Part shown: piece after piece, positions 23,007 to 53,214 of the stretch
How positions within the stretch are numbered: the stretch's first letter is position 1
How the letters are laid out: every line of letters begins with the position of its first letter
Source: Microvirga alba
GTDB lineage: Bacteria; Pseudomonadota; Alphaproteobacteria; Rhizobiales; Beijerinckiaceae
Length of the DNA: 64,000 nucleotides
Direction of reading: 5' to 3'
Assembly: GCF_015694465.1 (NCBI RefSeq)
Contig: NZ_JADQDO010000010.1
Coordinates: 1 to 64,000 of the forward strand
The notes under the pieces: generated by a model
Told to the model about the DNA's origin: nothing
Database searches by the model: none
What the model saw: the letters and a program-made list of their open reading frames with translations, nothing else
Translations under genes and position numbers: made by a program

Positions 23007-23096
23007 GGAGAGGTGGCAGAGTGGTTGAATGCACCGCACTCGAAATGCGGCATACGGGCAACCGTATCGGGAGTTCGAATCTCCCCCTCTCCGCCA
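23007..23096 (+). tRNA. tRNA-Ser (anticodon CGA); island integration site
   Basis: The 90-base class II tRNA has acceptor GGAGAGG paired with CCTCTCC, discriminator G and genomic CCA. The anticodon stem CCGCA/TGCGG encloses the loop CTCGAAA, giving CGA. The long variable arm and GTTCGAATC T-arm are typical of serine tRNAs. The last 17 bases (23080-23096) recur at 53198-53214, so the gene is the attachment site of the following island and its 3' end is regenerated by the insertion. Confidence 0.96.
23080..23096 (+). repeat. attL: 17-bp direct repeat in tRNA-Ser 3' end
   Basis: TCTCCCCCTCTCCGCCA is the end of the tRNA-Ser gene including CCA. An identical copy lies at 53198-53214. The bases flanking the match differ on both sides, so the repeat is exactly 17 bp. 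Position next to a tyrosine recombinase gene fits an integrase attachment core. Confidence 0.85.
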
Positions 23097-23184
23097 TGCT
23101 TCCTGAGCCCCTCCGCCAATTTTCAAACGGCGCATTTCCCTGAAAATCCAGCGTTCCGGCCCGGTCCCTGATCGGAATGTACAC

Positions 23185-24839
23185 ATGCTGGTACAGTCGA
23201 AAGTATCGTCGCCGGGCCGCTACCTGATCCGCAGCGGCACCGCCTATTTGTTCCAAATCCGCATCCCGACCGCCCTTGCGCAAAACCGGCGAATCCCCCC
23301 TTTTCGGATAGGCCTCGGGCCGATCTCGAAGCGGGCGGCGCAGCAGCGCGCCGACCAGCTCGCTGTTCTGGCCCGGCAGGCATTCGCGCATGCACAGGCC
23401 AGGATGATGCAGATTGACGGACAGATGCTCGGCGGAATCACGCCGTTGTTCCAGGGTGACAGCCTCGACGAGGTGCTCGCCGAGATGCGGGGCTTCATCA
23501 GGGCCGCCGCTCTTCTGCTCGATGAGCCCGAACCCCTGCCCGGCCCGCGCCGAGTTGCCGACCTCGCCGCGCTGAAGGGCGTCGTCACGCTTGAACGGGA
23601 GCTTCGCAAGGACTCCGCCGCCGCCCCGCTGATCGCCGACAACGCAGACATGCTACGTGCCCGCTACCATCACGACCTCGGCGGTGTTCCGGCTTCCCTG
23701 CCCCGAAGTGCCCCCCTGGCCGTTCCGGCGCAGCCGGTCTCGACCAAGCCGCTGTTCAGTCAGGTCGCCGACGAGTACATCGCCATGCGGATCGGGTCCG
23801 ACGGCGCGGACCACAAGGACATCAAGTACCTGGGGCTGCGCAAGCGCGTCTTCCTCGAAATCGTCGGCGACAAGCCGGTCGACACCTATAAGCAGAGCGA
23901 CCTGCAGAAATTCGTCAACGAGCTCCAGTTCTGGCCGGCGAACGTTACGAAACGCACCGATCTCGGCGAGATGTCGGTCCAGGAAATTTTGGAGAAGAAT
24001 CAGGACCGACATCTCCAGCCCCTGAGCCGGAAGACCGCTGAGGATGGCTATGTCCAGAACATCCGCACCATGTTTCGGCACGGCTGCACCGAGCACGACT
24101 ACCGTTACCCCTTCTCGGACGTGAAGATCCGCTGGCCCCTCGGCTACCGCCCGTCCATCCCCCGCGAGGGCCTCAGCGATCAGATCAAGGGCGAGGCGTT
24201 CGGTTCGGCGTTGCCTCCGGACTCCTCGACGAGGCCCTGTTGCCGCTCCTCGGCCACCTGAGCGGGCGCCGGCTCGGCCTCCTGTGCTATCTTCGCGGCT
24301 CCGATATCCGCGAAAAGCACGGTGTGTTCGTCGCCCAGACCGACGGGATCGTGTTCCGCGACAACGCGTGGACGAGGGTGCCGTACAAGACGCAGGACAG
24401 TATGACCTTCTTCGTCCTGCATGACTTCCTGAACCAAATCGGGTTCATCGAATGGGCCAGGGCCAAGGACGGATTTCTGTTCGACATCGTCCAGGAATAC
24501 TCCGACCCCGAAAAACAGACGTCGGGCAACATGAACGACCTCCTGAGGAAAGCCGGAGCAGCCGGCAAGCAGCGAGAGGTGTTCCATTCCCTGCGTCACG
24601 ACCTGATCGACCATATGCGCAATAAGTAGGTCGATCCGCGGGCGCGCCGCCTCCAAGCCGGGCACGAACTCGGAGATGAGCACGAAGGCTACGGCAGCCG
24701 CGAGATCAGCGCCGAAGAGTGCCGACGCCTCGCCCGCCTGCCGCTATCGAAGGAGATCGACTGGTCCGTGTTCAAGGAGCTGGATTTTGAGGCGCTGGCG
24801 AAGGCGCGGCGCCAGCGCGGGCGCCGGAAGAAGGATTGA
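23185..24839 (+). pseudogene. Tyrosine recombinase/integrase, frameshifted and with an in-frame stop
   Basis: Three reading segments together make one integrase of about 550 residues. The first (23185 to about 24200) has the basic N-terminus and SAM-like core-binding domain (LFSQVADEYIAMRI...DHKDIKYLGLRKRVFLEIVGDKPVDTY). The frame then shifts by one missing base near 24195-24215 and continues as LLPLLGHLSGRRLGLLCYLRGSDI, which carries the first catalytic arginine region, and FHSLRHDLIDHMRN, the HxxR motif. A TAG at 24627-24629 interrupts, after which the same frame continues with LQAGHELGDEHEGYGSR, the GH and catalytic tyrosine region, and ends at 24839. All catalytic motifs survive in pieces, so decay is recent (or base-call errors are present). 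It would have inserted the island at the adjacent tRNA-Ser. Confidence 0.85.
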
Positions 24840-25386
24840 TTCCACTGGGAGAGCAGCGGGCAAACTGCTCCCGTTCCCTCCGCCATTTTCTGACCTGCCG
24901 GCAATCCCAGGTTTTTCAATGCCCGCGGCGCGCGTGTACACGGGATTGTACACCCGCCGGGCCGCCTCACCCGCCCCCCTGCGGGCTTCGTTTTCCAGAC
25001 CAAAATCCCCAAGGCCCTCGACCCGAATCTGTGCGCCGATCCGCGTGAGCCTAGGTCCTGCGATGCGGAGCGGTTGGCGACCCGACTCGCCGGCGCCCGA
25101 CCGCTGCGTACTAGCCACGGGATGAGAAGACTTTCAAACAGGAATTTACTCTCTTAAGATGCGCCTTCGTCCTGTATATCCTTGAAGACGGTACGGTCGT
25201 ACAGACTAAAATCCGGCGCCACAATGAACTGACAATGAACTCCTCTTTGGATTGGAACTCAAAGTCTGGCCTGGCTGCATGGGAGCGCGCACCCAAGGGC
25301 GCAAAGAATCTCATAGTGTTCGCAGCGGAAAGACTTTGATAGTCGAGGCAAGTTCATTGCTTACAATATAACAGCTAAGGGACACC
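24840..25386. other. Non-coding stretch after the integrase
   Basis: No credible gene is seen. A short GC hairpin followed by TTCGTTTT (about 24976-25000) could end integrase transcription. The motif TGTACA occurs twice within 20 bases (about 24935-24957), and TGTACA occurs again near 23174, just before the integrase start; recombination-protein arm sites are one possibility but this is speculative. From about 25120 onward the sequence becomes AT-richer than the flanking genes. Confidence 0.4.
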
Positions 25387-25521
25387 ATGCTAGAAAATTT
25401 TATACTGTGGTACTCGGAATTAAAATTGCTTGATAGACTGGCGATCTCGGCATTCGTCGGACTGGTTTTTACTGTTGCCGTGATGCTGGTGTCAGGAACA
25501 ACAGTCATATCGATGCGATGA
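25387..25521 (+). CDS. Small single-pass membrane protein (44 aa)
   Basis: A 44-codon ORF, MLENFILWYSELKLLDRLAI followed by a strongly hydrophobic stretch (about residues 20-39: SAFVGLVFTVAVMLVSG) and ending SMR. AAGGGA lies 4-5 nt upstream of the ATG, and an AT-rich promoter-like segment (TTGCTT ... ATATAAC, 25356-25372) lies just before. It reads as a one-helix membrane peptide. It sits at the head of the dpd gene cluster in the same direction, but nothing like it is known to me in dpd loci. It could be an independent cargo gene or a toxin-like or regulatory small protein; its being expressed is an inference. Confidence 0.4.
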   Translation: MLENFILWYSELKLLDRLAISAFVGLVFTVAVMLVSGTTVISMR

Positions 25522-25670
25522 TGATATTGGACCAGCAAGAGCGTGCAGTTTGATGAAGCGTAGCTGCCGCCCCGGTTGAGCCATTCGAATCTAGATTTCC
25601 CATTACGTTTTGAGCTGTGTAGCCAGCTAATCAGCCAAGCAGGCAGTCCGCTCCAGACTGATGGAGAACA

Positions 25671-25814
25671 ATGCCACGACCTGGACCAATAGGTTTTCGG
25701 AAAATTCCCCACGGAATCATCAATTCAAATGGACCAGTTTCCGGCCTGCTAAGCGTAAGATATGGATTCGTGGAGAGCCTCTCTTTCAGACTCCGGAGCG
25801 CTCAAAGGATATGA
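25671..25814 (+). CDS. Possible 47-aa ORF directly before dpdE
   Basis: ATG 25671 is preceded by GGAGAA 4 bases upstream, and the ORF (MPRPGPIGFRKIPHG...) ends with TGA at 25812-25814. That stop overlaps an ATG at 25811 in the ATGA fashion used elsewhere in this operon. The product is basic, with no recognised domain. The overlap suggests that the ancestral dpdE start was the ATG at 25811 (see findings), which would make this a small leader gene of the operon. Support is only the ribosome site and the overlap. Confidence 0.3.
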   Translation: MPRPGPIGFRKIPHGIINSNGPVSGLLSVRYGFVESLSFRLRSAQRI

Positions 25815-25910
25815 ATGCCCTTGCTCTCCTAGTGATTCGAGATTGAGCGCCTGGTTATTGCCGAGCACATCGAACTGGCGGGACTCTTTGGAAGAGACAA
25901 CGATCCCAAT

Positions 25911-28900
25911 GTGCTCTTGCGCAGGCCGCACCAGCAGGCGATAGTTGCTCCCAAAATGGGGGATGGGGTGGCCGACGCAGAGTATGCGTTCTTGAGAGAA
26001 GGATGGTTTGTCGAAGTCGATGACGTCCGAAGACTAGGAAAATTCATCGCACGAGATGGCGCCCGGTTGGATGTCGAGTTCTTCCATTCGGCCTCGAACC
26101 GCGAAGTTGTCGGCTTTGAGGCGTCGGTTGTCAGGCGGACCTACTTGGCTCGCGAAACACGGGTTTATTTCAGTCCGTCCGAGAGCGGTCAATGGCTCAT
26201 GGGGCGGATCCGCGGCTACTTCCTCGAAGACGATGGATCGGTCACGTACGAAGTGCGCTGCCCGAACGGCCATGACAGGGATGTTCCCGAAAGCGCTTTG
26301 CGCGCGCGCTGTTTCGCCGTCCTTGGCGACCCCGCTGAGGTATTAGCCATCGGGGCGGGCGAGACGCAGCGCTGGCACGATGCTCGGTGGTCGGCTTTGG
26401 AGTCGCTGATTGCGCTGCGCTCAGCTTCGAACGGACTGACGGGCCTCGCATCTGCATCGGTCGAACTCGTGCCACATCAGGTGGAAGCCATACGGCGGGT
26501 TCTCTGCGATCCACTGCAGCGATACTTGCTTGCCGACGAAGTGGGCTTGGGCAAGACGATCGAGGCTGCAGCAATCATTCGTCAGGTGCTACTGGACGAA
26601 CCCGGCAGGCGGGCAGTCGTAGCCGTAACACAGCCCCTGCTGAAGCAGTGGGAGCGTGAACTGCACGACAAATTTGGCATTGAGGTGGGCGGGGAAGTTC
26701 GGTTGGTGGCGCACGACGAGTTGTCGAACTGCAAGAGCGCGCCGGATCTTCTGGTGATCGACGAGGCGCACCGAATTGTACCCGGATCGCCGACCTTTGA
26801 CGCGCTGTCGCGCCTCAGCCAAAAGTGCCGAAGAACACTGCTCCTCTCGGCCACGCCTTTGATCGGGCACGAAGAAGCATTTCTCGCGCTCCTGCGTTGG
26901 CTCGACCCGGACCGCTGGAAACCCGAAACGCTGGAGGGCTTCAGGCACCACGTCGCGAAAAGCCAGGAGTACGGAAGGCTCCTCCTAGGCCTCAGAGCGG
27001 ACGCCAGCACGTTCTTGCTCAGGCAACGGGCCACTGGAGCAAAGCACGCGTTTCCTGACGACGCGACGGTGCAGGAATTGGCCAACGAACTACTTGAAAA
27101 GCTCGACATTCCCGACCAACGAAGTCGACTTTGCGGGGAACTCAGAGAGCACATAGCCGATACCTACCGCATCCATCATCGCATTGTAAGGTCGCGGCGG
27201 TCTGACCTGGATGGATGGGAATTCCAACCGCGCGGCCCGGCTACCGTGCGCGAGGAAGCCGACGATGATCCGGCGCTCCAGAAAGTGGTTGCTTTGCTTG
27301 AGGACTGGCGCGGTGCGGCACTGCTCGCGCTCGATGCCGATCCGGGCCTAGAGGATGTGCTAGCGCGGCGCTTCGCCTTGCTCGTCGAGACTGCTGGACA
27401 AGGCGTCGGTGCACTCGCCACGCTACCGCAACTTGAGCCCTTGTTCGCCAGCGAGTCTGAGTTCCTCGTCGCGCTCCGTTCCTGTGCTGAGCCAGACGCC
27501 ATCGAGAGGCGCGCAGAGCAAATCGCGCTCATCGCTGAGCGGCATCTGAAGTTTCTCCGCCAGTCTATTACATCACCCAAGCTGGTAGTTTTCGCCACCA
27601 ACGGGTCGTCCGCGGCAGCGATTGCGACCGCATTGCACGCGCGGCTGGCGGCGGAAGCCGTCATTACCTTGGCTCGAGCCAAAGAGGGCGACGATGTGGT
27701 CCGCTTCGAGTGTGACCCGCGCGCCCTCGTTGCGATACTCGATGTACGGGGAGAAGAAGGTCTGAATCTCCACTTTGCGGACGCTGTGCTGCACACCGAT
27801 CTTCCCCTTTCGATCGGCCGACTCGAGCAGCGGATCGGCCGCCTTGATCGCTTTGGGCGATCGAAGGGGCCTCTCAAGCACATCGTCGTCATCCCGGACG
27901 GCGACGAGAACACCCCTTGGAGCGTGTGGCTCGATCTTCTTCGGTCAGGCATCGAGATCTTCGACCGCCCCGTCAGCGACCTACAGTTCGTTATCGAGGG
28001 CGTCGAGCGAGGCATCCGTCGGCATCTGTTGCGAAGCGGCGCCAATAACCTGGACGGGTACATCTCCTCGCTCAAAGAACTGATGGCGACCGAGCGGCAG
28101 CGACTGGACGAACAATACGCGCTCGACCAACTCGCGATGTCCCGAGAACCATCGAGGGCGCTAGTTGCGGCAATGGAAGAGGCCGAGGAGGATGAAAGCG
28201 AACTCGCCGATCGGCTTGAACACCTATTAGGCAACCTTCTCAACTTCCGGATTTCGCGCACCAAGGACGAGTTCAGATTGGCCTGGGCGCACAACACCCT
28301 GCTGCCCGAACGGCCTTGGCGTTCTGTGTTCGAGGCAGCGCTCAAACGCCCTCTGACCTGGAAGCGCCGGGTGGCGCTGGCCAGACCGGATGTCGGACTG
28401 CTGCGCCCGGGCGCGCCACTCGTGGACGCGCTCGAGCGTCTGCTCCTGTGGGACGACCGCGGGAGTGCGTTCGCAACCTGGCGGTTTCACCGGGGTGCCG
28501 GTGGGGTCGGAGATGAGGGGCTCTACTTTCGCCTCTGTTGGGTAGTTTCACCGGGCTATTTCGTGAATGCCGACCTTTTGAAAATGGAAGATGTGGAGGG
28601 CCTCCGTCGGAGAACTGTTAGCTTCTTGCGCCCGTGGACCCTCGTGCAGCATGTAGGCGCCGACCTCACCGAAGTGCGGGCGCCTGAGATTTTGCAAGCA
28701 CTGCAAATGCCCTTCCGGCCCGGAGTGAGCGATGGAGGCCGGGATTTCAACCTGGGGAGCAGACCGGATTGGTTGGCGTCTGTGGTCAGCCCTTCTGAGT
28801 TCGCCGACCTCTGCTCGCGAATACGCAATTTCGGGCGTCAGGTGCTCGAAGAAAGCGAAGAGTTTGCGGCGCGCTGTAAGGCTGCCGCCCTTGCGGCCAA

Positions 28901-29084
28901 GCACGACGCCGAGCGCCGACGCGGGCGTCTGGAATCCCGCGCGGCGCGCGGCGACCAGTCCGCGTGCCGCGAGCGCGAGTTGGACTTGGCCGTGGTTCGA
29001 TCCGTCGAGACGCCAAGTGTGCGTTTAGACTCTGTCGGTGCGTTCATCCTGGCCGGCTATGTTCCGCAGGGAGCGCGCCGTTGA
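25911..29084 (+). CDS. dpdE: DpdE: SNF2/RapA-like helicase of the Dpd system
   Basis: A superfamily 2 ATPase of about 1057 residues, first gene of the dpdE-F-G-H-I-J-K-D operon. Motif I is ADEVGLGKTIEA (about residue 207), motif II is DEAH (about 283), motif III is LLSATP, and the second RecA-like half ends with DVRGEEGLNLHFADAVLHTDLP and RLEQRIGRLDRFGR (motifs V and VI), the RapA/SNF2 pattern. The C-terminal third is unique to the family. In Salmonella Montevideo dpdE is needed for the restriction-like phenotype of the dpd island. The GTG at 25911 is the first usable start, but in-frame protein-like sequence (LVIAEHIELAGLFGRDNDPN) continues upstream to a stop near 25833, so the N-terminus may be broken by a frameshift. 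Confidence 0.85.
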   Translation: MLLRRPHQQAIVAPKMGDGVADAEYAFLREGWFVEVDDVRRLGKFIARDGARLDVEFFHSASNREVVGFEASVVRRTYLARETRVYFSPSESGQWLMGRIRGYFLEDDGSVTYEVRCPNGHDRDVPESALRARCFAVLGDPAEVLAIGAGETQRWHDARWSALESLIALRSASNGLTGLASASVELVPHQVEAIRRVLCDPLQRYLLADEVGLGKTIEAAAIIRQVLLDEPGRRAVVAVTQPLLKQWERELHDKFGIEVGGEVRLVAHDELSNCKSAPDLLVIDEAHRIVPGSPTFDALSRLSQKCRRTLLLSATPLIGHEEAFLALLRWLDPDRWKPETLEGFRHHVAKSQEYGRLLLGLRADASTFLLRQRATGAKHAFPDDATVQELANELLEKLDIPDQRSRLCGELREHIADTYRIHHRIVRSRRSDLDGWEFQPRGPATVREEADDDPALQKVVALLEDWRGAALLALDADPGLEDVLARRFALLVETAGQGVGALATLPQLEPLFASESEFLVALRSCAEPDAIERRAEQIALIAERHLKFLRQSITSPKLVVFATNGSSAAAIATALHARLAAEAVITLARAKEGDDVVRFECDPRALVAILDVRGEEGLNLHFADAVLHTDLPLSIGRLEQRIGRLDRFGRSKGPLKHIVVIPDGDENTPWSVWLDLLRSGIEIFDRPVSDLQFVIEGVERGIRRHLLRSGANNLDGYISSLKELMATERQRLDEQYALDQLAMSREPSRALVAAMEEAEEDESELADRLEHLLGNLLNFRISRTKDEFRLAWAHNTLLPERPWRSVFEAALKRPLTWKRRVALARPDVGLLRPGAPLVDALERLLLWDDRGSAFATWRFHRGAGGVGDEGLYFRLCWVVSPGYFVNADLLKMEDVEGLRRRTVSFLRPWTLVQHVGADLTEVRAPEILQALQMPFRPGVSDGGRDFNLGSRPDWLASVVSPSEFADLCSRIRNFGRQVLEESEEFAARCKAAALAAKHDAERRRGRLESRAARGDQSACRERELDLAVVRSVETPSVRLDSVGAFILAGYVPQGARR

Positions 29085-32466: not shown

Positions 32467-35444
32467 ATGAAGGAACTTTGCTGGAAGCCAGAGCGCGTTC
32501 ACGATGTGATCAACATCGACGCCGACTTCGTACCCGACTCCGTGTTCTGGGCCGTGGACAACGAGGCGCCCTTGACATTCAAGGAGGGCGAGGGGGAGGC
32601 AGCTCGGAGCGTCTCCACCAATGAACTCGTCGAGCGCTTGCTCGACCCAACCCGAGGCCACTATCAGTTGGCTGTGCTCGGACCGGCGGGCACGGGCAAG
32701 TCGCACCTCATCCACCGCATCCGTCAGCGCGTTCAGGGGCGGCCCGGGTTTGAGATCCTGGCAGTGCGCCGCCTCGAGACGAACCTTCGCGCCATCCTCG
32801 AAAAGCTGATCGACCGACTGCCTGCGGACCGGCGCGATCGCTACCACACCGAACTTAAGAAGGCCGGGCCCGCGCTGTCGACGCCCGAGGTTCAAAGGGG
32901 AACGCTGCTCGACAGCCTGGCGCAAGCGATCGAAGAGGACGTCCGGCGACCTGACTCGGGCATCGATCCTGAACTCGAGGACGCGCTCCTGGCCGCTCTG
33001 CCCAATATGTTCCGCGACCCGTACCTCCGGAAGGAGAAATTCCTGAAGCTAGGCGAGGTAGTTCCGGAGCTGGTGGATCGCCTCTTCTCCAGTCGCGAGG
33101 GGAAGCGCCTCGAGGAGCGGGTGCTGTTCGAGCGCTCCAACCTGCCGCTGGACGGCATCGCGCTGCTCAACTGCTCGATGCAGGCCCGTGAGGCGATCGA
33201 AATCTTCCTCTACGACTCCGATCGTTACATCCCGGCAACCCTGGACGTTATCAATCGTAGCCTGGACAGGGCCATCGCGCGTGCACTCAACTTCAGTGGA
33301 GACCAGCTCGGCAACCTGATGGGCGAGATCCGGTCTTACCTGAAGACGCGGGACAAGGAACTCGTCATCCTGTTCGAGGAGTTCGCTCGTCTCCAGGGTT
33401 ATGACGCGTCGATGCTGGCTGCTCTGCTCGTCCAGGGCGGCGACACCCTCTGCAACGTGCGATGGGCACTCGCATGCACCACGGGCCGTTTCCGCGAACT
33501 TCCCGACACCGTGCGCACCCGCATGGACGGCATCATCGACATGGAAGGAGCTCCGCCCAAGTCAAGGCCTTCGCGGGGCGTTACTTGAACGCGGCGCGCA
33601 TCGGCCGCGAGCGCCTGGAGCAGGCGTTCGTCGACACCGGGGAGGCGGGTGTACCCAACGCATGCGGCACATGCCCTGCGCGGGGACCCTGCGCTGACGC
33701 ATTCGGGGCCACCGAAGAGGGATACTCCTTATATCCGTTCACCGAGAGCGCCCTGAACACCATGGCGCTGCGGACGAATCCCGAGGCGGCCACCCGCTTC
33801 AACCCGCGCACATTCCAGAAGTACGTCCTTCGTCCAGTGCTCGTCGACGAGGCATCAGCACTCGCGGCCGGCGAGTTCCCTACGGCAGCGCTCTTGAACC
33901 GCATGGGCGGCTCCAACTTCCGCCCTGACGAGCGGGCGCGACTGATGGATAAGGCTGGGCCTCGCTTCGATCGATACCTATCGCTGTTCCAGCTCTGGTC
34001 GGACGGTCGGCTCGAGAATCCCCCCGAAGGCGTGATGCCTGCCTTCGGACTTGAGCCGCTCGCCGGCCTCGATGTGCGCCCCCCGCCGCCACCTCCGGGG
34101 CCCGATCCCTTGCCGCCGCAACCCACCCCTAGAGACCCGGTGTCGGTTCAACTCGCAGTGTGGGTTGAGGGAGGGGACATGGATCAGTCGCTTGCCCAGA
34201 GGCTCCGGCAGGCGCTCTTTCCGATTATCGAGCGCGCCATCGATTGGGATACTCTGGGTCTGGTCCCGACGTCGTTCGCCGGTGCCACGGCCACCACGGC
34301 GCGCCCTTTCCGCAACGCCAGCATCGCTTTCGCTCGGCAGGTGACTACGGGCGGTGCAGTACCGCCTATCCGTCTCGAATTGCCGTTCCAACAAGACGAT
34401 CAGGGCTTCACTAAGGCGGCATTTGCGCTTGAGACCCTCCTGAAGATCGAGAAATCGGGTTGGAGTGCGGGAGGCGGCATTGCTGGGCTCGCAGCACTTT
34501 CGGAACTCGTGGAGGTTTGCGCCGCGGACGTCGTACGACAAGTGCAGGGACTGCGGGGGAATACCAAGAAGTGGGACCCCATCGCCGGCGTAGTCGAGTT
34601 GCTGCTCGTCGGATCCGCGCTCGGTGGGGCGCTCATCCCCACCCAGGCTCAGACCGACGAGGGATTGTTGGAGTCACTGTTTAAGGACGTTCCCCAAGAG
34701 AGTCCGTCGACAACGACCGAGTTGAGGAGCGTCTACGCCTCACTTCGCCAGAAGCGCAGTGCACTCCAAGACCTGCTGCGCGCCCACATCTCGGTCACAA
34801 AGGGGGGCCGGGCGGGACGGTTCATCAACCCAGTGGTCCCGCTGGCAGCCGCTCGCCTTCTTCGACGCCGGAATTGGAAGCTCGATCGCCACCCGGAAGC
34901 GCTGCCCGATCCTTACAAGGTCGTCGGCGACCTCTACGAGGCCGTGCAGGGCAAGCTGCACGCTGCCTTGCTAATGGAGCGCGACGAGCGGACCCGCTGG
35001 TTGGACGAGGTCGAACAGGGCCTCGGCTTCGAACCCACTCGGCAAAGCGTCCTCGAAGGCGTTCGACGCGCCCTAGATGCGGCAGCGCTCGGTGGATTGC
35101 CGGGCCCCCGCGCACCCCTCGAAGCGGCCCGCGACGAGTTCGCGAACGTGCACTTTGTCGCCGCATTGGAGGCGGCACGCCGCATCCGTGACGCCGACCC
35201 TCCTGAAGGCGAGTTGCCCAGCTTCGCCAGAGCGCATCGCAATGCGATCGAGGCGACTCAGAACCTCATTCGACGCTGGGCCGACTTTTTGGCAATGGCC
35301 GAAGCCGAGGTCCGGGCGCGCCGCGCGGATAGCGCAAGCGTTGAAGTGGAACGGGAAACGACGAGGCTGAACGCAGTCCTTGGAGCACTGGTCCAGGACC
35401 TTTCTGAACTCGAGCCAGGAGGGACCTCCCGTGACGCTGCTTGA
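32467..35444 (+). pseudogene. dpdH: DpdH ATPase, split by a -1 frameshift
   Basis: Two overlapping frames together give one protein of about 990 residues, the size of DpdH. The N-terminal part (32467 to about 33550) has a P-loop GPAGTGKSHLIHRIRQ (about residue 72) and reads on to RTRMDGIIDMEGA. The frame then needs one extra base: the other frame continues QVKAFAGRYLNAARIGRERLEQ and runs to 35444. Without correction the first frame ends 37 bases later at 33588. The C-terminal part has a cysteine cluster CGTCPARGPC, a Pro-rich linker (PPPPPPGPDPLPP) and a helical end. No classical slippery heptamer is at the junction, so a lost base or a sequencing error is more likely than programmed frameshifting. 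dpdH was not in the set of Salmonella genes clearly needed for restriction, so loss may be tolerated. Confidence 0.8.
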
Positions 35445-36144
35445 GCGCTCTGAGCAACTCTCGGTGGAGGTCGGTGAGATCAACGCCCTCGGTGCCATCG
35501 CCCACCAGGCGGAGGCGATCCGCTCTCGCGCGACGCAGTTCGAGAATGTCCTCGCAGAGCTCAGGTTATGCGCGGGAAGCGCGCGGCAACTGCGTGATCG
35601 TGGGATAGAAATTGAGGCCGAGGTCCAAGCCGTGGCCGGCGTCCGGCACTTCCTGAGCCAATTGCTCGATGCGGTCACCGCCGATCCAGCCGCAATTTTA
35701 GGGGCGAAGGACATTCAGCCGAAGATGTTGGTGCCCCTGGGAAAGATCGCCTCAAGCCTCCAGGAGGCCGCCAATCAAGCCTGGGGCAGATACGTCCGGC
35801 AGCGGTTGCCAGCGGTGAGCAGCGACTTGCTCGACGCATTGAACCGCGTGCCTGCCCTCCGGCCGAAGGTCGAACACTTCCGCGGGCTGAGGGATCGGGC
35901 CTTGGCGAGCGCCGCGCGCACACCTTCAAAGGCCGCCGAATTCGATGTCATGGAAGTCCTCACTACGCAATGCAACGAGGCTTGGCGTGATCTCGACGCC
36001 AGGGACATACCGCAAGATGTGCTTGTCCTGTTCCGCGAAGCAGCTACCCCGCGTGGCGCGGGTCTATCGAAACTCACGCCAAGCGTGCTCACCTGGCTGG
36101 AGGAGCACAGACTCGCGGAAGCGTTCGGGATACGCATCAGATGA
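35431..36144 (+). CDS. dpdI: DpdI: conserved helical protein of the Dpd system
   Basis: A 237-residue, largely alpha-helical protein with coiled-coil character in its first half (ERSEQLSVEVGEINALGAIA, HQAEAIRSRATQFENVLAEL). No enzymatic motif is seen. Position and size match DpdI, which in Salmonella contributes to the restriction-like phenotype. GTG 35431 is chosen because AGGAGGG lies about 7 nt upstream; it overlaps the end of dpdH by 14 bases. The stop overlaps the dpdJ start (ATGA), so translation is coupled. Confidence 0.75.
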   Translation: MTLLERSEQLSVEVGEINALGAIAHQAEAIRSRATQFENVLAELRLCAGSARQLRDRGIEIEAEVQAVAGVRHFLSQLLDAVTADPAAILGAKDIQPKMLVPLGKIASSLQEAANQAWGRYVRQRLPAVSSDLLDALNRVPALRPKVEHFRGLRDRALASAARTPSKAAEFDVMEVLTTQCNEAWRDLDARDIPQDVLVLFREAATPRGAGLSKLTPSVLTWLEEHRLAEAFGIRIR

Positions 36145-40667: not shown

Positions 40668-41197
40668 TGACCTTGAGCCGCGACCTCTCGGTCCCCTGGC
40701 AGAGTCGCCCGATGCAGGACGTCCTGCAGTCGCTGTTTTTGGCCGAACTGGTAAGCCCCGGCTCCCAACTGTGGCTGCTGTCGGCATGGGTCAGCGACAT
40801 CGAGGTGGTGGACAATCGCGCTCGAGCGTTCGCCGGCGTCCGCCCCGACTGGCCGTCGGCTAAGATCCGATTGTCCGGAGTGATTGAGGCGCTTGTTACC
40901 CGCGGCGCGCGTGTGGCCATCGTGATGCGGGACGTGGACCACAATAACCCGTTTCTAAAGCGGTTAGAGGAGATCCAGCGCTCCGCGCGCGGACACCTCG
41001 GGATCGCGCTTGGCGAGGCCGCTCACGAAAAGACTATCGTCGGTGATGATTACGTGTTCGGCGGTTCCATGAACCTGACGCACTATGGTCTCACGTCGAA
41101 TGACGAGCACATGCTCTTGCGAGTCGATCCGGCCGCAGCCGCCCGCCGCCGCCTTGCGATCGACCAACGGTGGAAAGGGGCTCTCAGATGGCAGTAG
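40664..41197 (+). CDS. dpdK: DpdK: phospholipase D-like nuclease of the Dpd system
   Basis: A 177-residue protein with one HKD half-site near the C-terminus: AHEKTIVGDDYVFGGSMNLT (about residues 118-137), that is H-x-K, then D and G-S-x-N in the normal spacing. A single HKD motif means it must dimerise to form an active site, as Nuc-type nucleases do. This is the only obvious nuclease in the operon and so the best candidate for the DNA-cutting component that acts on DNA lacking the modification; that role is inferred from the family and from the Salmonella dpdK phenotype. ATGA overlap with dpdJ; the dpdD start lies inside its last ten bases. Confidence 0.88.
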   Translation: MMTLSRDLSVPWQSRPMQDVLQSLFLAELVSPGSQLWLLSAWVSDIEVVDNRARAFAGVRPDWPSAKIRLSGVIEALVTRGARVAIVMRDVDHNNPFLKRLEEIQRSARGHLGIALGEAAHEKTIVGDDYVFGGSMNLTHYGLTSNDEHMLLRVDPAAAARRRLAIDQRWKGALRWQ

Positions 41198-43669: not shown

Positions 43670-44233
43670 TCAAGCAGGCTGAAGGCCAATTCGGGCGTCC
43701 CGCTCGCGGAGCAGCCAAATCACCGGCAAAGCGAGAAGCACCATCCAACTCTTGCCGAGAACCTGACCGATCAAGAAAGACAGGTTGCCGAAGGCTAGCC
43801 ACAGGAACAGGATACTGTCGACCACAAGGCCCATTGCACTGCTAGCGACCACCGCCAACACCAGGCCCCGGCGCTGCAGTGGCGTATATACGGCAAAGTC
43901 CGCGAACTCTGAGACCAAGAACGCAAGGCCGGAGGCGACGACGAGGGCTGGCGGAGCCAGCAGCGCCGAAAGTACTGCACCGACTAACACTGCTCCCAAG
44001 GCCCACGCCTTCCCAAGCCGGCGCTGCACGAGGTCCCTCAGCACCAAAGCAAGTCCGACCATCAGAACGCCGCTTGGTGCCAAAATTCCTGGGGCGACCG
44101 GCAACAGGCACGGACTATTCGGAGGACACACCGTCCCGACGTGGCCAATGAACCAATTCGCTGCCGGAATGCACGCAGCGAATGCCAACAAAAACGCATA
44201 GCCTTCAACTCTTTGCCGAGTTTCCAAATTCAT
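43670..44233 (-). CDS. VUT family transporter (YhhQ-like, preQ0/preQ1 uptake)
   Basis: A 187-residue membrane protein with about six hydrophobic segments and the VUT/PF02592 family pattern: [49 protein letters not shown], and [23 protein letters not shown]. coli YhhQ of this family imports the queuosine precursors preQ0 and preQ1. Its start codon overlaps the queC stop (ATGA), so it is translated with queC in the modification operon. The natural role is to supply 7-deazaguanine base to DpdA. This is the last gene of the leftward operon. Confidence 0.85.
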
Positions 44234-44949
44234 CGGGACACTCCTTCATGGGAAGATGCTGCGCTCCATTGCTCGTAACCTGCTGCGCGCAATTCACAGG
44301 CTGGACATTCACCACATCCGTAACCCCAGTCATGCAGGTTGCCCCGTTCACCGCGGTAACAAGTGTGTGTCTCGGTTCGCACGATTTCGACCAAAGCGTC
44401 GCCCCCGAGTTCTCGTGCGAGATCCCAGGTCTCGGCCTTGTTAATCCACATGAGAGGCGTATTCAGGACGAAGCGGCGATCCATCCCGAGGTTGAGCGTC
44501 AACTGCATCGCTTTGATGGTGTCATCCCGACAATCGGGATAGCCGGAGTAATCCGTTTCGCACATGCCGCAGACAATGTGCTTCAAGCCACGGCGATATG
44601 CGAGGGCTGCCGCGAATGTGAGAAAAATAAGGTTCCGCCCTGGCACAAAGGTATTGGGCAGGCCATCATTCCCCATGGCGATCTCAACATCTCGGGTCAG
44701 GCTCGTGTTTGAGATCTCGTTGAGAGCATCAATCCGAATCGTGTGGTCGTCACCGAGTCGCCTTGCCCATTGGGGAAACTCACGGGCGAGGCACTGGCGG
44801 ATTGTTTCGCGGCACTCAAGTTCGACAATGTGCCGCTGACCGTAATCGAAACCTACTGTCTCGACAGACTCGAACCTATCCAGGGCCCAGGCTAAGCACG
44901 TCGTCGAGTCTTGCCCGCCCGAAAACAAGACGAGAGCGCCGTTTGTCAT
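44230..44949 (-). CDS. queC: 7-cyano-7-deazaguanine (preQ0) synthase
   Basis: A 239-residue QueC, which converts 7-carboxy-7-deazaguanine to preQ0 with ATP and ammonia. The PP-loop [14 protein letters not shown] is at residues 9-22, the substrate region [20 protein letters not shown] follows, then [19 protein letters not shown] and the C-terminal zinc site with cysteines in THTCYRG and [13 protein letters not shown]. All catalytic elements are intact. ATG 44949 is supported by GGAGAA 7 nt upstream and lies in an ATGA overlap with a queE remnant. QueC gives the dpd operon its own last step of preQ0 synthesis; queD and folE are not in the window and must come from elsewhere. Confidence 0.94.
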
Positions 44950-45062
44950 AGCCGGTTCTCCGCTTTGGATGGGCCGAAAAAGCTGCACTCGCTGCGCGCT
45001 CTACCAGCCTGTGCGCCCTCGCCCTGTGACCTCTTGAAGATCTCTTTGACGCTGTAAGCCAT
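44946..45062 (-). pseudogene. queE: queE remnant: N-terminus of 7-carboxy-7-deazaguanine synthase
   Basis: A 38-codon ORF whose first 22 residues, MAYSVKEIFKRSQGEGAQAG, match the start of QueE (YSVKEIF...QGEGAQAGR is the family's N-terminal signature). The following residues do not match QueE, and the radical-SAM cysteine motif that should come next is absent. More than 80 percent of the gene is missing, apparently by one internal deletion joining codon 22 or so to the sequence just before queC. The remaining ORF still ends in an ATGA overlap with queC and lies directly after dpdB. It is too short for activity. It shows that the operon once encoded queE as well as queC. Confidence 0.75.
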
Positions 45063-45068: not shown

Positions 45069-46172
45069 TTACCCAGTCATGGCTTCAAGCAAGGGAGCTG
45101 GATCAGAACCTTTCGATCGGCGCGCCCTTATATCTGCACGGACGATTCTCAATAGATACTGTGCAAGGGTGGTGACATCGCGGCTGACATTCTGAATGGC
45201 TTTCCAGTGGCGCACGTCACCTCCACCGAAGTCCCAGTGACCGCGGGTCCAAGCCGTACGCCCTTGCAGACACTCCATGCCCTTGGCAAATTGCCGCCAT
45301 GTCCGTGCGCCGTCTAATGCCGCAAGGACTTCCATAACATACCCGAGAGATCCGATTCCGGCTCCATGAACCAGGCGGGATGTTCTTGGAGTGTGATCCC
45401 ACCAGTCCTCAGGGAAGGTAGCTTTCACGGCTTCATAGAACTCGCTGATGATCTTCAAACCTGCATCACGCCCCCCTTCCACTCTCAAGAGGTCACGCAG
45501 GATGCCGTCGTTCAAAGAGTTCATGATTACTTTTTGAATAGCCGTATCGCTGATGAAACCTGATGGATTGGTGTGCTGATGAATTTTGCCTTTTAGAGAG
45601 TAGGATCCATGATTGAGCCGGTCGGTGAGCTCCGCCGCAATGGAACGTCCCTCGAGGCGGGTAGGCAAATTCTCCACCCCTGGGAGAAGTTCATAGATCA
45701 GGGATTTGGGCAGCGGGCGGGTGTTGTTGATCAAGACGAACTGCCGACGAAGCTCCGCTTCATCCCGGCAGATCACAATTGAAACAAACACCTTGAAATC
45801 TTTATTCTCAAGTTGAGACAAGGCAGTCAGGCGCTGCTGTCCGTCGACGACGAGGCCAAGCGGCCCCTCTGACAGATCGATCTTAATTCGACATGTTGCC
45901 CCGTTGACATCAGTCACCTTCACTCCTTTCGTGAAGGCGACAACGATAGGGTTTGGCAAGATGGCGTCGGGCTTTTCTAAATAATCCCGTATCTCGCGAA
46001 TATGAGTGGCAATCTGCGGACGCTGAAAGCCACTAAGGTTACCTTCTTCATCTCGGCCGATACGCTCGATTGCTGCAAAAGTGAGAATATCCTTTGCGGT
46101 CGCGGCAATCGATACCACAGTATGCGTTTTGCTCTGATCCGCCCGGATCGCATTAAAAGTAAGATGGCGCAT
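45069..46172 (-). CDS. dpdB: DpdB: DGQHR/DndB-like partner of DpdA (copy 1)
   Basis: A 367-residue protein of the ParB/DndB-like DGQHR family. The nucleotide-binding signature is VVDGQQRLTALSQLENK (about residues 108-124), preceded by LPNPIVVAF and followed by FVLINNTRPLPKSLIYELLPG. In the Dpd system DpdB acts with the transglycosylase DpdA to put preQ0 into DNA. Its ATG follows the dpdA stop with no spacer (TGAATG), so translation is coupled. A second, divergent copy lies on the other side of dpdA. Which of the two is the true functional equivalent of Salmonella DpdB cannot be told by reading. Confidence 0.85.
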   Translation of the reverse strand: MRHLTFNAIRADQSKTHTVVSIAATAKDILTFAAIERIGRDEEGNLSGFQRPQIATHIREIRDYLEKPDAILPNPIVVAFTKGVKVTDVNGATCRIKIDLSEGPLGLVVDGQQRLTALSQLENKDFKVFVSIVICRDEAELRRQFVLINNTRPLPKSLIYELLPGVENLPTRLEGRSIAAELTDRLNHGSYSLKGKIHQHTNPSGFISDTAIQKVIMNSLNDGILRDLLRVEGGRDAGLKIISEFYEAVKATFPEDWWDHTPRTSRLVHGAGIGSLGYVMEVLAALDGARTWRQFAKGMECLQGRTAWTRGHWDFGGGDVRHWKAIQNVSRDVTTLAQYLLRIVRADIRARRSKGSDPAPLLEAMTG

Positions 46173-47459
46173 TCAGACGGCCTCTTTGATATCGAGATTG
46201 TCGATAAGATGTTTGTAGACGCCCAGGTTGTGGATCCCACGGCGTTTGTTCCGATTGCTGGCGCGAAAGAGCATCACCTCGATGGAGGCGCTCTGACAAA
46301 TGGCACAGGAACAGTGGCGCCAAGCGCGGTCGGAAAGCGTCATACGGTACCTGTCCGCGAGGGCCTTTACCTTCGGCAAGTCAGCCACGTCCGCGTAGGG
46401 GCGTTCAGTCAGCAAGATCGCGTTGTAGGCCATGACGGCTTGCGTGGTCTCCTCGACGTCGCATTCATGGCGGTCAAAAGCCCGTAACGCCGACAGGGAT
46501 GTCTTCTCCAACTGCGTCAAGTCCTCCGCACGAAAAGCTCCTCGTTTGACGAGACGCTGGAGGCGCGTGTTCTCAATCGACTGCGGCACCCGAATGGCAG
46601 TGTAATACTTGAGCCGCCCCTTGTCTGCAGGCAGGTAGTAGTTCTGCCGGTCGTCCTTGAACGCCCTGATCAGGGGAGATGTCGTATCGAAGCTCGTGAT
46701 GTTGAACTCAAGGAATGACTCAATATCGTCGGCCTTTGCAAAGCCGAGGACATGAATTCTCGTATCCGACGGAATAGCAGCGCGGATCGCCCGCAGGCAG
46801 TTTTGGATTTGGTTGGATTTCAGGGGCACCATGCCGCCAATGGCGAGATAGGTATAGCCCAAGCGGACCAACCGCTCTGCAGCGACGGCCATGCTGCCGG
46901 GAGACCAGCCTTGCACCACACCAAGAGGCGTGAACCGGTTGTTGATGCGATGCGCCAAGGAAAAGAACTTGCTCGCATTGTCGAGCGTAATCTCGAACCG
47001 CCGTTGTCTCTCGGGGGTCTGACCATCCAGGCCCTGCAGGCCGTCCACATAGTCGAAGATAATGTGATCGACCGAACACCCGTGCGTGAAGCCACCGTGG
47101 TCGTAGAAGTCGATCATTTCCTCAGGGCTGTACGGAGGAACTTCCTCGTTCACATAGGTGAAAGCCCCGCAGTCGCCGTAAATGGCAAGATGTCGATACC
47201 GTTCACTGTCAAGACGGAGAAATTTGCGAGCCCCTTCGATTTGGAACCGCATCGCCTGCGAGGCGCTGTATTTTCCGGCAACCCTGTGGTCGCCAACGAT
47301 CCCGCGCGACACGAGGATGCCGTCATAGGGAGCATACCCGAGGATCTCGTGCGGGTAGAGGTCATCCCAGTACGGTTTTCGGGTAGGCGCGTGGCGATCG
47401 GCCAGCATGTCGTAGTGTGGATCGACCATGTCGAGAGAGTCGGCAAAGATAAACTTCAT
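46173..47459 (-). CDS. dpdA: DpdA: DNA 7-deazaguanine transglycosylase (TGT-like)
   Basis: A 428-residue homologue of tRNA-guanine transglycosylase that exchanges guanine for preQ0 in DNA. The TIM-barrel core contains IYGDCGAFTYVNEE (about residues 91-104; the aspartate is the likely catalytic or base-binding residue), CSVDHIIFDYVDG, VVQGWSPGSM, YLAIGGMVPL, and FNITSFDTTSPLIRAF with the second aspartate. A C-terminal zinc-binding pattern CSCAIC...RGIH (C-x-C-x2-C-x21-H) matches TGT-type enzymes. Its ATG overlaps the stop of the upstream dpdB-like gene by 4 bases, and its stop abuts the next dpdB. It is the defining enzyme of the island. Confidence 0.92.
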   Translation of the reverse strand: MKFIFADSLDMVDPHYDMLADRHAPTRKPYWDDLYPHEILGYAPYDGILVSRGIVGDHRVAGKYSASQAMRFQIEGARKFLRLDSERYRHLAIYGDCGAFTYVNEEVPPYSPEEMIDFYDHGGFTHGCSVDHIIFDYVDGLQGLDGQTPERQRRFEITLDNASKFFSLAHRINNRFTPLGVVQGWSPGSMAVAAERLVRLGYTYLAIGGMVPLKSNQIQNCLRAIRAAIPSDTRIHVLGFAKADDIESFLEFNITSFDTTSPLIRAFKDDRQNYYLPADKGRLKYYTAIRVPQSIENTRLQRLVKRGAFRAEDLTQLEKTSLSALRAFDRHECDVEETTQAVMAYNAILLTERPYADVADLPKVKALADRYRMTLSDRAWRHCSCAICQSASIEVMLFRASNRNKRRGIHNLGVYKHLIDNLDIKEAV

Positions 47460-48580
47460 CGGTGGGGCCTTGCGAGATCACGGTCGAGGCGAACGAGGTA
47501 ATCAGACAGCCTCGAAATATGTGGTGTGGTGCTCTGAATCTCGTTCCAGCGCCAACCAAGCTCCTCCCAGCTTCCTTCGGTCCAATGACAGTATGGGGCA
47601 ATCCGACTCAGCGAACGACGCACCTCCTCCTCAACGGTCGTCGAGGTTTCAGCTCGTAGCATGATGGGATCCATAAGTGCCCCCATGGCGCGAATACCGG
47701 CCGAATGCATCAGGCGACTCTCGGTTGGTTTCCGTCCCCAGGCATGTGGGAATGTGTCTCGGACGGCTGCCCAATACATGACCAGGCTGCGGTACATGCC
47801 ATCCGTGTCAGCGCTACGCGAACCACTAAACTGGCTCAGAGCCCCAAGCGGGGGGCGCAGATTCCGTTTGATCGCCTCCACGAGCGCCGTATCGATGACA
47901 ACGGCCTTATCGCGCTCGCTGTCCGACTCCCGGCGGATCAGATGATAGAACGGCGATGACGGGTCCCGGTTGAGCAGATTACACAACTCGGACGGCTGTC
48001 GCCGAGGAGCCAAGTCCCGCGGCAGGACACTACCAATCTCGGGGAGGAGTTCGTTAATCAACCGGGTCGGCAACGGCTTAGCCTTGTTGACCAGGATGAA
48101 CTGCTCGCGCTGCGTGCCAATATCGGGGGAGACGAATCCGACGACCGGAACCGGAAATCTCGAATTTTTGGCTTTAGCCAGAGCTAATGAGCGCTGCTGC
48201 CCGTCAACAATCCATGCGGCGCGCTGGCCCTCCGGGTGAACGGGGATCGTCAGGGTGCCGCTCTGCGCTGCCTCAATCAGCCCTCCAGGGGCAGGCCCCC
48301 GCGATTGCCGGAACTCAATTTCCTGCGAAAGGGCCAGAATGATCGCATTGGGGAACAACACAGGACCGCTGTTGAGGAACTCGAGAATCGAGTTCACATG
48401 CTCCCGGATTTCCTTACGCTGAAACCCACGCAGCCCCTCCGCATCATCCCTAGCAATGCGACTGATGTCCGCCACCTTTGTGATGTCAGATCCGTGCAGA
48501 AAGAACGAGTAAACCGGCACCCCATCCCCTTGGACGGCACGGAGCGCCCGAACGACGACAGGGCTTATAGAGGGAGGCAT
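47456..48580 (-). CDS. Second DpdB-like DGQHR-domain protein
   Basis: A 374-residue paralogue of the DpdB protein on the other side of dpdA. Shared features in the same order: GFQRKEIREHVNSILEFL, LFPNAIILAL, IVDGQQRSLALAKAKNSRFP (about residues 124-143), FILVNKAKPLPTRLINELLPE, then ESRLMHSAGIRAMG near the C-terminus. The two proteins align over their full length but are clearly diverged. Its stop overlaps the dpdA start by 4 bases. dpd loci usually carry one dpdB; two copies may form a heteromer or recognise different sites. Naming it dpdB2 would be premature. Confidence 0.8.
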   Translation of the reverse strand: MPPSISPVVVRALRAVQGDGVPVYSFFLHGSDITKVADISRIARDDAEGLRGFQRKEIREHVNSILEFLNSGPVLFPNAIILALSQEIEFRQSRGPAPGGLIEAAQSGTLTIPVHPEGQRAAWIVDGQQRSLALAKAKNSRFPVPVVGFVSPDIGTQREQFILVNKAKPLPTRLINELLPEIGSVLPRDLAPRRQPSELCNLLNRDPSSPFYHLIRRESDSERDKAVVIDTALVEAIKRNLRPPLGALSQFSGSRSADTDGMYRSLVMYWAAVRDTFPHAWGRKPTESRLMHSAGIRAMGALMDPIMLRAETSTTVEEEVRRSLSRIAPYCHWTEGSWEELGWRWNEIQSTTPHISRLSDYLVRLDRDLARPHR

Positions 48581-50412: not shown

Positions 50413-50428
50413 CAAGAGGATTCGTCTC

Positions 50429-51409: not shown

Positions 51410-51471
51410 TCCTGAGGGGCTTAGGTTGGCGTGTGTCCTGACAAGCGTTCGGTTGGCCATCGACATATCGG

Positions 51472-52517: not shown

Positions 52518-52716
52518 TCTGAAATCTCCTGGCGGATTCGCGGCTAGCCCTGTAGCGAGCCGTGGTCTCCTAAATGAACTACTGGGACGAATGACTAGTT
52601 CGGTGAGTAAGGTGTGCCTTTTGACTGCTTGCCACGATTAGCCCGTTGGGTTGGAAAGCGGGCCAGGAGAACAGTCACGGTCCCAACAACATGTGATTTA
52701 TGGATTAAACTCCATA

Positions 52717-52729
52717 TGTCAATTTGACA
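52717..52729. promoter_or_regulatory. 13-bp palindrome with divergent -35 boxes upstream of xre
   Basis: TGTCAA-T-TTGACA is a perfect palindrome. Each half read outward is a consensus -35 hexamer TTGACA. Leftward, TAAATC lies 16 bases beyond as a fair -10 for the two unknown genes. Rightward, the xre start is only 20 bases away, so that transcript would be leaderless if this -35 is used. An operator for the XRE protein is likely. Confidence 0.5.
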
Positions 52730-52749
52730 ACCTCGGCTTCGGTCTGCGG

Positions 52750-52977
52750 ATGGAAATCCAGCAGATCGTTGGCGCAAACGTCAGAAAATACCGGCAAGCT
52801 GCAAAGCTATCGCAGTGGGACTTGGTGGCCCGACTGGAGGCGATGACGGACGACCTCGGGGTCGACCAAGCGTATATCAGCCACCTTGAGAATGGCAGGA
52901 AGAACCCGACCCTGAATGTCCTATGGCATATTGCTCAGGCGCTCGGCGTTTCGCTTGCGCAATTGGTTGAGGAATAG
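52750..52977 (+). CDS. XRE family transcriptional regulator
   Basis: A 75-residue helix-turn-helix protein: VGANVRKYRQAAKLSQWDLV, then DLGVDQAYISHLENGRKNPT and LNVLWHIAQALGVSLAQLVEE, the complete five-helix Xre/SinR fold. The start ATG 52750 (MEIQQIVG) is chosen because the HTH begins there; the open frame to 52651 adds 33 residues without character. No Shine-Dalgarno is visible, consistent with a leaderless message from the palindrome 20 bases upstream. It probably represses itself and the divergent pair 52517-51472. It is the last intact gene inside the island. Confidence 0.82.
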   Translation: MEIQQIVGANVRKYRQAAKLSQWDLVARLEAMTDDLGVDQAYISHLENGRKNPTLNVLWHIAQALGVSLAQLVEE

Positions 52978-53197
52978 CCGAACGCGGGAAACCCATCGCA
53001 AAGAAAAGGTTGGACGAGCTTCGGCTGAAGTCGAACCCGGCGCCCGAACGGCGACGGTTGTCTTCCTGCCGACATCCTCTTGCCGGCCATGTAGAGCCTC
53101 GGGTACATTGAAAAGTATCGTAAATGTATCGCGACCAACCGGTTGGTTTTGCTGGACCTCCGGGGAATAAAGGGCTTTCCAAGCAATTGGGGGAGGG

Positions 53198-53214
53198 TCT
53201 CCCCCTCTCCGCCA
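53198..53214 (+). repeat. attR: 17-bp copy of the tRNA-Ser 3' end
   Basis: Identical to 23080-23096. It is preceded by GGGAGG rather than the tRNA T-arm, so it is a bare copy without a tRNA gene. It marks the right end of the island, giving a total island length of about 30.1 kb. Confidence 0.82.

What the first reader, a model, noticed from the sequence alone, without database searches (positions are those of the whole stretch)
23080..53214. Complete Dpd (7-deazaguanine-in-DNA) island inserted in tRNA-Ser(CGA)
The sequence shows a TGT-like DpdA, DGQQR-motif DpdB proteins, a DpdC candidate, QueC, and an eight-gene overlapping operon whose sizes and motifs match DpdE-F-G-H-I-J-K-D. The whole block lies between exact 17-bp repeats at a tRNA gene. 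In Salmonella Montevideo dpdA and dpdB make dPreQ0 in DNA, dpdC converts it to dADG, and dpdE, G, I, K, D (and perhaps J) give restriction. This organism's DNA is therefore predicted to carry dPreQ0 or dADG and to restrict unmodified incoming DNA. The split into two convergent operons, modification with precursor supply versus restriction, is unusually clean.
Basis: partly seen in the sequence, partly recalled or inferred. Interest (0 to 1): 0.85.

Follow-up and report, generated by a model that had tools for sequence, protein, structure and literature searches.

The report
DNA-marking island with swapped restriction genes
A soil bacterium carries a known type of gene island that is predicted to mark its own DNA with a modified base and attack unmarked DNA; comparison with relatives suggests that the marking genes and the attacking genes are separate parts that swap partners.

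Summary
Window 23097-53214 is a Dpd (7-deazaguanine-in-DNA) island in the tRNA-Ser(CGA) gene of a Microvirga-like genome. DpdA, B (twice), D, E, F, G, J and K pass curated cut-offs; DpdC is matched by PADLOC, H by two half-matches, I only weakly. Two congeners show the empty site.

Corrections: (1) dpdH is split by a frame change near 33525-33567; 11 of 11 compared loci have one frame. (2) The integrase has a frameshift and an in-frame stop. (3) Island queE is a stub and queD is gone; the host has its own queC-D-E and folE. (4) The convergent layout is common (6 of 11 loci).

Beyond the finding: the modification cassette is near that of M. aerophila (DpdA 94%), but the restriction proteins are only 23-38% identical, and a DpdJ tree rejects the pairing. 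In E. coli one cassette occurs in 159 of 5426 genomes, and three different dpdJ types in 58, 47 and 54, without overlap. The DNA mark looks constant while the restriction machine is exchanged. I found no report of this in the library searched; the founding Dpd papers are not held there.

The parts
23007..23096 (+). tRNA-Ser(CGA), integration site; its 3' 17 bp (23080-23096) is the left attachment repeat
23185..24839 (+). integrase gene, broken: frameshift within about 24162-24225 and in-frame TAG at 24627-24629; aligns along its length with an open 618-621 aa relative in congener G007, which matches the PHROGs integrase family
25911..29084 (+). dpdE, SNF2-like helicase
   Evidence: NCBIfam NF041062, 1015 bits
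28964..31591 (+). dpdF, RecQ-like helicase; the family match begins at residue 63, so the true start is probably near 29081
   Evidence: NF041063, 791 bits
31588..32457 (+). dpdG
   Evidence: NF041064, 123 bits
32467..33588 (+). dpdH 5' part (AAA ATPase domain)
   Evidence: NF041065 positions 2-362 of 1014; AAA_16
33462..35444 (+). dpdH 3' part in another frame; homology starts at about 33525-33567; a TTG at 33585 overlaps the upstream stop (TTGA)
   Evidence: NF041065 positions 379-1011
35380..36144 (+). dpdI, assigned by position and a weak match
   Evidence: NF041066, 53 bits, below cut-off 150
36141..40667 (+). dpdJ, YprA-family helicase (family name from PMC12458937)
   Evidence: NF041067, 1708 bits
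40664..41197 (+). dpdK, phospholipase D-like protein with an HxKx4D motif (motif recalled)
   Evidence: NF041068, 181 bits; PF13091; letters
41170..43263 (+). dpdD
   Evidence: NF041061, 535 bits
43670..44233 (-). YhhQ/VUT-like queuosine-precursor transporter
   Evidence: PF02592, 44 bits, cut-off 27; TIGR00697 37 bits, below cut-off 51
44230..44988 (-). queC
   Evidence: TIGR00364, 213 bits, cut-off 150
44997..45062 (-). 5' stub of queE; rest of queE and all of queD missing relative to M. aerophila
45069..46172 (-). dpdB2
   Evidence: NF041060, 378 bits
46173..47459 (-). dpdA, DNA-guanine transglycosylase
   Evidence: NF041059, 546 bits; PDB 7UI4 E 1.2e-92; motifs conserved
47456..48580 (-). 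dpdB1
   Evidence: NF041060, 456 bits
48565..49485 (-). dpdC (weak DUF6884 match), predicted dPreQ0-to-dADG enzyme
   Evidence: PADLOC PDLC02815, E 9.6e-84
53198..53214 (+). right attachment repeat, identical to 23080-23096
   Evidence: empty-site junction

Best explanation
This is a Dpd island that entered tRNA-Ser(CGA), probably by integrase-mediated recombination (repeats and empty sites shown), and whose integrase is now broken (shown). DpdA, with DpdB1 and DpdB2, replaces guanine in DNA with preQ0, and DpdC converts that to dADG (inferred from the families). PreQ0 comes mainly from the host's own FolE-QueD-QueE-QueC route and perhaps from uptake by the YhhQ-like protein (genes shown, flux inferred). 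The DpdE-to-K and DpdD machine attacks DNA that lacks the mark (inferred). The modification cassette and the restriction operon are separable modules: near-identical cassettes are found with quite different restriction operons (shown). The common currency is therefore probably the mark itself, not a co-evolved contact between the two halves (inferred).
For: Family hits. DpdA matches S. Montevideo DpdA 7UI4 over residues 1-418 of 428, with GDCGAFTY, SFDTTSP and CxCxxC...H motifs kept. Empty sites in G028 and G005. Host queC-D-E on contig C18, two folE-family genes, one TGT. Exchange: DpdA window to G017 94%, but DpdJ 38%, E 32%, F 36%, G 29%, K 31%, D 23%, while G017's restriction proteins are 59-79% identical to those of A. 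vitis and Shinella. The DpdA tree joins window and G017 with 100/100; the DpdJ tree rejects that pair (log-likelihood 84.7 lower, p-AU 1.8e-51). E. coli: dpdA-dpdB in 159 of 5426 genomes; three dpdJ types in 58, 47 and 54 genomes; the three accession lists do not overlap (union 159), and 30 of 30 cassette genomes printed are each in exactly one list. Between types DpdA and DpdB are 96-98% identical, the eight restriction proteins 20-50%.
Against: No chemistry or phenotype was measured. The split dpdH may disable restriction in this strain. DpdC (67%) and DpdB2 (82%) are less conserved between window and G017 than DpdA and DpdB1 (94%), so the cassette itself may be mosaic. In E. coli the three loci viewed have one dpdB and queD only, queD is 92-93% identical, and in elppa6 the dpdC position holds two short ORFs, so it is a parallel case with its own decay. 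The DpdJ tree has long branches; the program warns that the place of the window row is unsure.
Confidence: 0.85

Rival explanations
1. The island is half-active: modification still works, but restriction is dead because dpdH is broken.
For: dpdH is split while 11 of 11 compared loci have one open frame. The integrase is broken and queE and queD are lost, so the island has been decaying.
Against: The other restriction genes are open; all but dpdI pass their cut-offs. Downstream of the frame change 660 codons stay open and the GC-rich third position moves to the new frame. The break lies after the AAA domain, and a TTGA stop-start overlap at 33585-33588, like the one at dpdF-dpdG, could let the second piece be translated (inference). 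As I recall the abstract of Yuan et al. 2018 (not held), dpdH was not among the genes needed for restriction in S. Montevideo.
Confidence: 0.35
2. The dpdH frame change is a sequencing or assembly error and the gene is whole.
For: One small indel is the only lesion seen in a gene of about 1,000 codons.
Against: The assembly has 25 contigs and 99.98% completeness, and no other dpd ORF is visibly interrupted. Reads were not available.
Confidence: 0.3
3. Window and M. aerophila descend from one island; the restriction genes simply evolve much faster than the modification genes.
For: Restriction proteins are less conserved than DpdA in several pairs.
Against: A. vitis and Shinella show the reverse (DpdA 76%, DpdJ 93%), and G017's DpdJ is 73% identical to theirs but 38% to the window's. 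In E. coli, DpdA at 96-98% goes with DpdJ at 39-50% between types. Tree test.
Confidence: 0.05
4. An ancestral island carried two restriction operons and different ones were lost (differential loss, not exchange).
For: No donor locus was identified for the window's restriction operon; the best DpdJ identity to any compared locus was 39%.
Against: I saw no second restriction operon in the annotated stretches of A. vitis, Enterobacter and three E. coli strains, and each of the 159 E. coli genomes holds one dpdJ type. A double locus was not searched for systematically.
Confidence: 0.1

Closest known systems
Dpd island of Salmonella enterica Montevideo (dpdA-K; recalled, and described in passages of PMC11888242 and PMC6884629)
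   Same: Same gene families for modification and restriction; DpdA matches PDB 7UI4 over nearly its full length; Salmonella islands are also reported at a tRNA locus, leuX.
   Different: Two dpdB genes, queC and a YhhQ-like gene in the cassette; split dpdH; DpdA has Q where 7UI4 has H (GVVQGW versus GVAHGW), as do 14 of 17 rows.
Dpd locus of Microvirga aerophila DSM 21344 (G017, NZ_QOIO01000003.1)
   Same: Cassette order C-B1-A-B2-(queE-queD)-queC-yhhQ; DpdA and DpdB1 94% identical.
   Different: queE and queD present; restriction operon on the same strand as the cassette and its proteins only 23-38% identical.
Dpd islands on plasmids of Agrobacterium vitis CG957 and Shinella zoogloeoides Teo12
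   Same: Convergent modification and restriction operons; queE-queD-queC-VUT in A. vitis.
   Different: Restriction proteins 25-39% identical to the window's; plasmid-borne; dpdH in one frame.
Three Dpd island types of E. coli
   Same: Constant cassette with different restriction operons.
   Different: In the three loci viewed: one dpdB, queD only; two of the three lie beside tRNA-Leu.

Membership tests
Dpd system | DpdA, TGT-like DNA transglycosylase | tested here: met
   NF041059 546 bits, cut-off 200; 7UI4 E 1.2e-92; catalytic and zinc motifs aligned (residue roles recalled)
Dpd system | DpdB, DGQHR-family partner | tested here: met
   Two copies, 456 and 378 bits, cut-off 300; both have DGQQR
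Dpd system | DpdC | tested here: met
   PADLOC E 9.6e-84; no NCBIfam match
Dpd system | Restriction genes dpdD, E, F, G, J, K | tested here: met
   All over curated cut-offs
Dpd system | dpdH as one gene | tested here: not met
   Two half-matches in two frames, 246 and 276 bits, each below the cut-off of 450; 11 of 11 compared loci have one frame
Dpd system | dpdI | tested here: inconclusive
   53 bits, below cut-off 150; expected position between H and J
Dpd system | dPreQ0 or dADG in genomic DNA | not testable with these tools
   Needs LC-MS/MS
Dpd system | Restriction of unmodified DNA | not testable with these tools
   Needs transformation or phage assay
Integrative genomic island | Flanking repeats at a tRNA and an empty site in relatives | tested here: met
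   (empty site in 2 of 7 congener loci)
Integrative genomic island | Intact integrase | tested here: not met
   relative in G007 matches PHROGs integrase, E 1.9e-12, Pfam Phage_integrase only weakly

The most novel reading that the evidence does not exclude
Dpd islands keep one DNA-marking cassette constant and exchange whole restriction operons around it, the reverse of Type I restriction systems, where specificity is shuffled (recalled). In E. coli one cassette is shared by three restriction types that do not co-occur, at similar frequencies (58, 47 and 54 of 159 genomes). This suggests selection for diversity in the attacking machine while the self mark stays a shared password.
Probability: 0.7. 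Interest if true: 0.6.

Novelty: new member of a known kind. Interest (0 to 1): 0.48.

Why it matters
The island itself is a further member of a well-described system. The partner exchange matters because it makes a mechanistic question testable: what does the large Dpd restriction complex recognise? If quite different operons accept the same cassette, they should read the chemical mark, or its absence at the same sites, rather than contact the modification enzymes. It also predicts that DNA marked by one Dpd type is safe in cells with another type, and that different operons may differ in which phages they stop.

Tried and rejected
Faster evolution of the restriction genes as the sole cause of the mismatch was rejected by the reversed A. 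vitis-Shinella pair and by the E. coli set. Programmed frameshifting in dpdH: I read the overlap by eye and saw no classical slippery heptamer, so I prefer a plain indel; this is judgement, not a test. A second integrase remnant near 24966-25028 matched only at E 0.031 and is kept as a lead. The search for related loci with the dpdH 3' part found no relative; with DpdA it found only M. aerophila.

Rows not counted or dropped: DpdA matches at 25-27% identity in 5 of the 8 matching genomes look like ordinary TGT and were not counted as Dpd. The samples (385 genomes of the class; 398 of the phylum) gave 1 (the window's own) and 3 matches. Acetobacter has dpdA and a dpdC match but no dpdB or restriction match in the stretch searched, and is not. 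Sinorhizobium, Rhizobium and Bradyrhizobium gave no restriction-gene match in the stretch searched. The trees hold 11 rows; they leave out five loci with a long DpdJ-like protein (G147, Methylobacterium, Caulobacter, Azospirillum, Skermanella) and the loci without DpdJ. In one search the G659 DpdE and DpdF frames are short (441 and 724 aa), so their identities are unreliable. In one search alignments starting before position 17000 were filtered out, so that table misses the GE3-MLI107 cassette match. (whole operon) shows 48 places in 47 genomes, 46 of them covering at least 80%; the dpdJ query gives 47. Of the 17 plasmid records I opened 12 (H1-H10, H12, H15); H11, H13, H14, H16 and H17 were not opened. 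No structure prediction or fold search was run.
Full report
What is there. The window comes from a genome of 4,424,757 bases in 25 contigs. So the host is a Microvirga-like bacterium; its species name is not known. A tRNA-Ser(CGA) gene ends at 23096. Its last 17 bases recur exactly at 53198-53214. In congener G028 the sequence that follows the tRNA matches the sequence right of the second repeat in the window: the left-flank match ends at position 1583 and the right-flank match starts at 1585 (175 aligned bases, 77%). In G005 the two flanks are collinear as well. The other 5 of 7 congener loci gave no right-flank match. The island is therefore 23097-53214.

Genes. The plus strand carries dpdE, F, G, H (in two pieces), I, J, K and D. 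The minus strand carries dpdC, dpdB1, dpdA, dpdB2, a queE stub, queC and a YhhQ/VUT-like gene. Of the dpd genes, all except dpdH and dpdI exceed an NCBIfam cut-off, save dpdC, which had no NCBIfam match and rests on PADLOC (E 9.6e-84). dpdI rests on 53 bits (cut-off 150) and on position. DpdA matches the solved S. Montevideo enzyme 7UI4 over residues 1-418 (E 1.2e-92) and keeps the GDCGAFTY, SFDTTSP and CxCxxC...H motifs. It has Q where 7UI4 has H (GVVQGW versus GVAHGW); of 17 rows, 14 have Q and 3 (7UI4, G726, Enterobacter) have H.

Damage. dpdH is read in one frame to about 33525 and matches again in another frame from about 33525-33567; the two pieces match positions 2-362 and 379-1011 of the 1,014-position model. 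All 11 loci in which I could place DpdH have one frame, 1033-1115 aa from match start to stop. The lesion lies after the AAA domain. A TTG at 33585 overlaps the upstream stop as TTGA, the same arrangement as at dpdF-dpdG, so a two-piece DpdH may still be made; this is inference. The integrase at 23185-24839 aligns with an open 618-621 aa relative of G007 but has a frameshift near 24162-24225 and a TAG at 24627-24629. That relative matches the PHROGs integrase family (E 1.9e-12) and Pfam Phage_integrase only weakly. Between dpdB2 and queC a short piece matches the start of queE (37 residues at 59%; 72 bp at 83%; sequence). In M. aerophila a full queE and a queD-like gene lie there.

Precursor supply. 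The host has queC, queD and queE together on contig C18 (its QueD scores just under the NCBIfam cut-off, 88.8 against 89.25, but over Pfam's), two folE-family genes and one TGT. Congeners G004 and G005 gave no QueC or QueE match and one PTPS-family match each. preQ0 for the island can therefore come from the host genes, with the YhhQ-like protein as a possible importer. The library's survey of Dpd islands (PMC11888242; passages read) reports YhhQ in about 9% of islands, QueC in over 20%, and 801 extra dpdB copies, so these features are known variations.

Partner exchange. I searched 16 other loci with the window's proteins and put 15 of them into identity tables. Window and M. aerophila share the cassette (DpdA and DpdB1 94%, DpdB2 82%, DpdC 67%), but their restriction proteins are 23-38% identical and the operons face opposite ways relative to the cassette. 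M. aerophila's restriction proteins are instead 59-79% identical to those of A. vitis and Shinella, whose DpdA is 60-62% identical to its own. A. vitis and Shinella differ more in DpdA (76%) than in DpdJ (93%), so a simple rate difference does not explain the pattern. With 11 rows, the DpdA tree joins window and M. aerophila at 100/100; the DpdJ tree rejects that pair (log-likelihood 84.7 lower, p-AU 1.8e-51), with a warning about long branches. A different, longer DpdJ-like protein (about 2,125-2,281 aa as open frame) goes with five other loci (G147, Methylobacterium, Caulobacter, Azospirillum, Skermanella), two of which (Azospirillum, Skermanella) have DpdA 61-64% identical to the window's.

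E. coli as a test. The dpdA-dpdB pair of an Enterobacter plasmid occurs in 159 of 5426 complete E. coli genomes at 90-99% DNA identity. Three restriction operons found beside it were used as queries: 58 genomes (whole operon; dpdJ), 46 covering at least 80% of the whole operon and 47 by dpdJ, and 54. The three dpdJ accession lists do not overlap and their union is 159; all 30 cassette genomes printed are each in exactly one list, 10 per type. The other 129 cassette genomes were not printed, so that they are the same genomes rests on the equal total. Between the three types DpdA is 96-98% identical, DpdB 97%, queD 92-93%, but the restriction proteins 20-50%. In the elppa6 and Enterobacter type the restriction operon is inverted between dpdB and the far end.

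How it most likely works. From the families: DpdA with DpdB inserts preQ0, DpdC converts it to the amide, and the DpdD-K machine attacks unmarked DNA. These steps follow published work on S. Montevideo; the primary papers (Thiaville 2016, Yuan 2018, Gedara 2023) are not held and are recalled, while PMC11888242, PMC12839542 and PMC6884629 were read in passages. My addition is that the two halves behave as separable modules, which implies that the mark is the shared signal.

Known or new. The island is a new member of the Dpd kind. I found no statement of restriction-operon exchange in the listings or in the passages read; this does not cover the unheld primary papers. The YprA preprint (PMC12458937, passages) describes Dpd-like diversity of the DpdJ helicase family, and PMC11888242 describes variable gene content (146 gene compositions), but the passages do not report constant cassettes with exchanged operons.

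Noticed in passing
50032-50419 and 51016-51417: A block of about 390 bp is present twice at about 85-87% identity. Each copy holds a palindrome TGTCYGATAA-N7-TTATCGGACA, resembling serine-resolvase crossover sites as I recall them. The exact pattern occurs at only these two places in the whole genome.
   Followed up: partly
52750-52979: Small XRE-type helix-turn-helix gene (HTH_3, E 1e-12) near the right end of the island, possibly a regulator.
   Followed up: partly
51472-52110 and 52101-52517: Two overlapping minus-strand ORFs of unknown function; the first has a weak DUF6634 match, neither has a PHROGs match.
   Followed up: partly
24868-24885 and 24966-25028: A degenerate copy of the tRNA-Ser end seen by eye, followed by a weak match to an integrase N-terminus (E 0.031); may be a second, older integration event.
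   Followed up: partly
L041, L042/L063, L068: A HAD-family hydrolase and a neighbouring hypothetical gene follow the preQ0 genes in the Sinorhizobium, A. vitis and Bradyrhizobium cassettes; function unknown.
   Followed up: no
L067, L069, L045: Dpd cassettes paired with a protein of about 2,100-2,200 aa. In L067 its middle resembles the DpdJ N-terminus and its N-terminal part an IGHMBP2-family helicase; the other two were not scanned.
   Followed up: partly
L080: 18970-19470 and 19481-19927: In E. coli elppa6 the place of dpdC holds two short annotated ORFs, where the E. coli GE3 and MLI107 loci have one of 852 bp; dpdC may be interrupted there.
   Followed up: no
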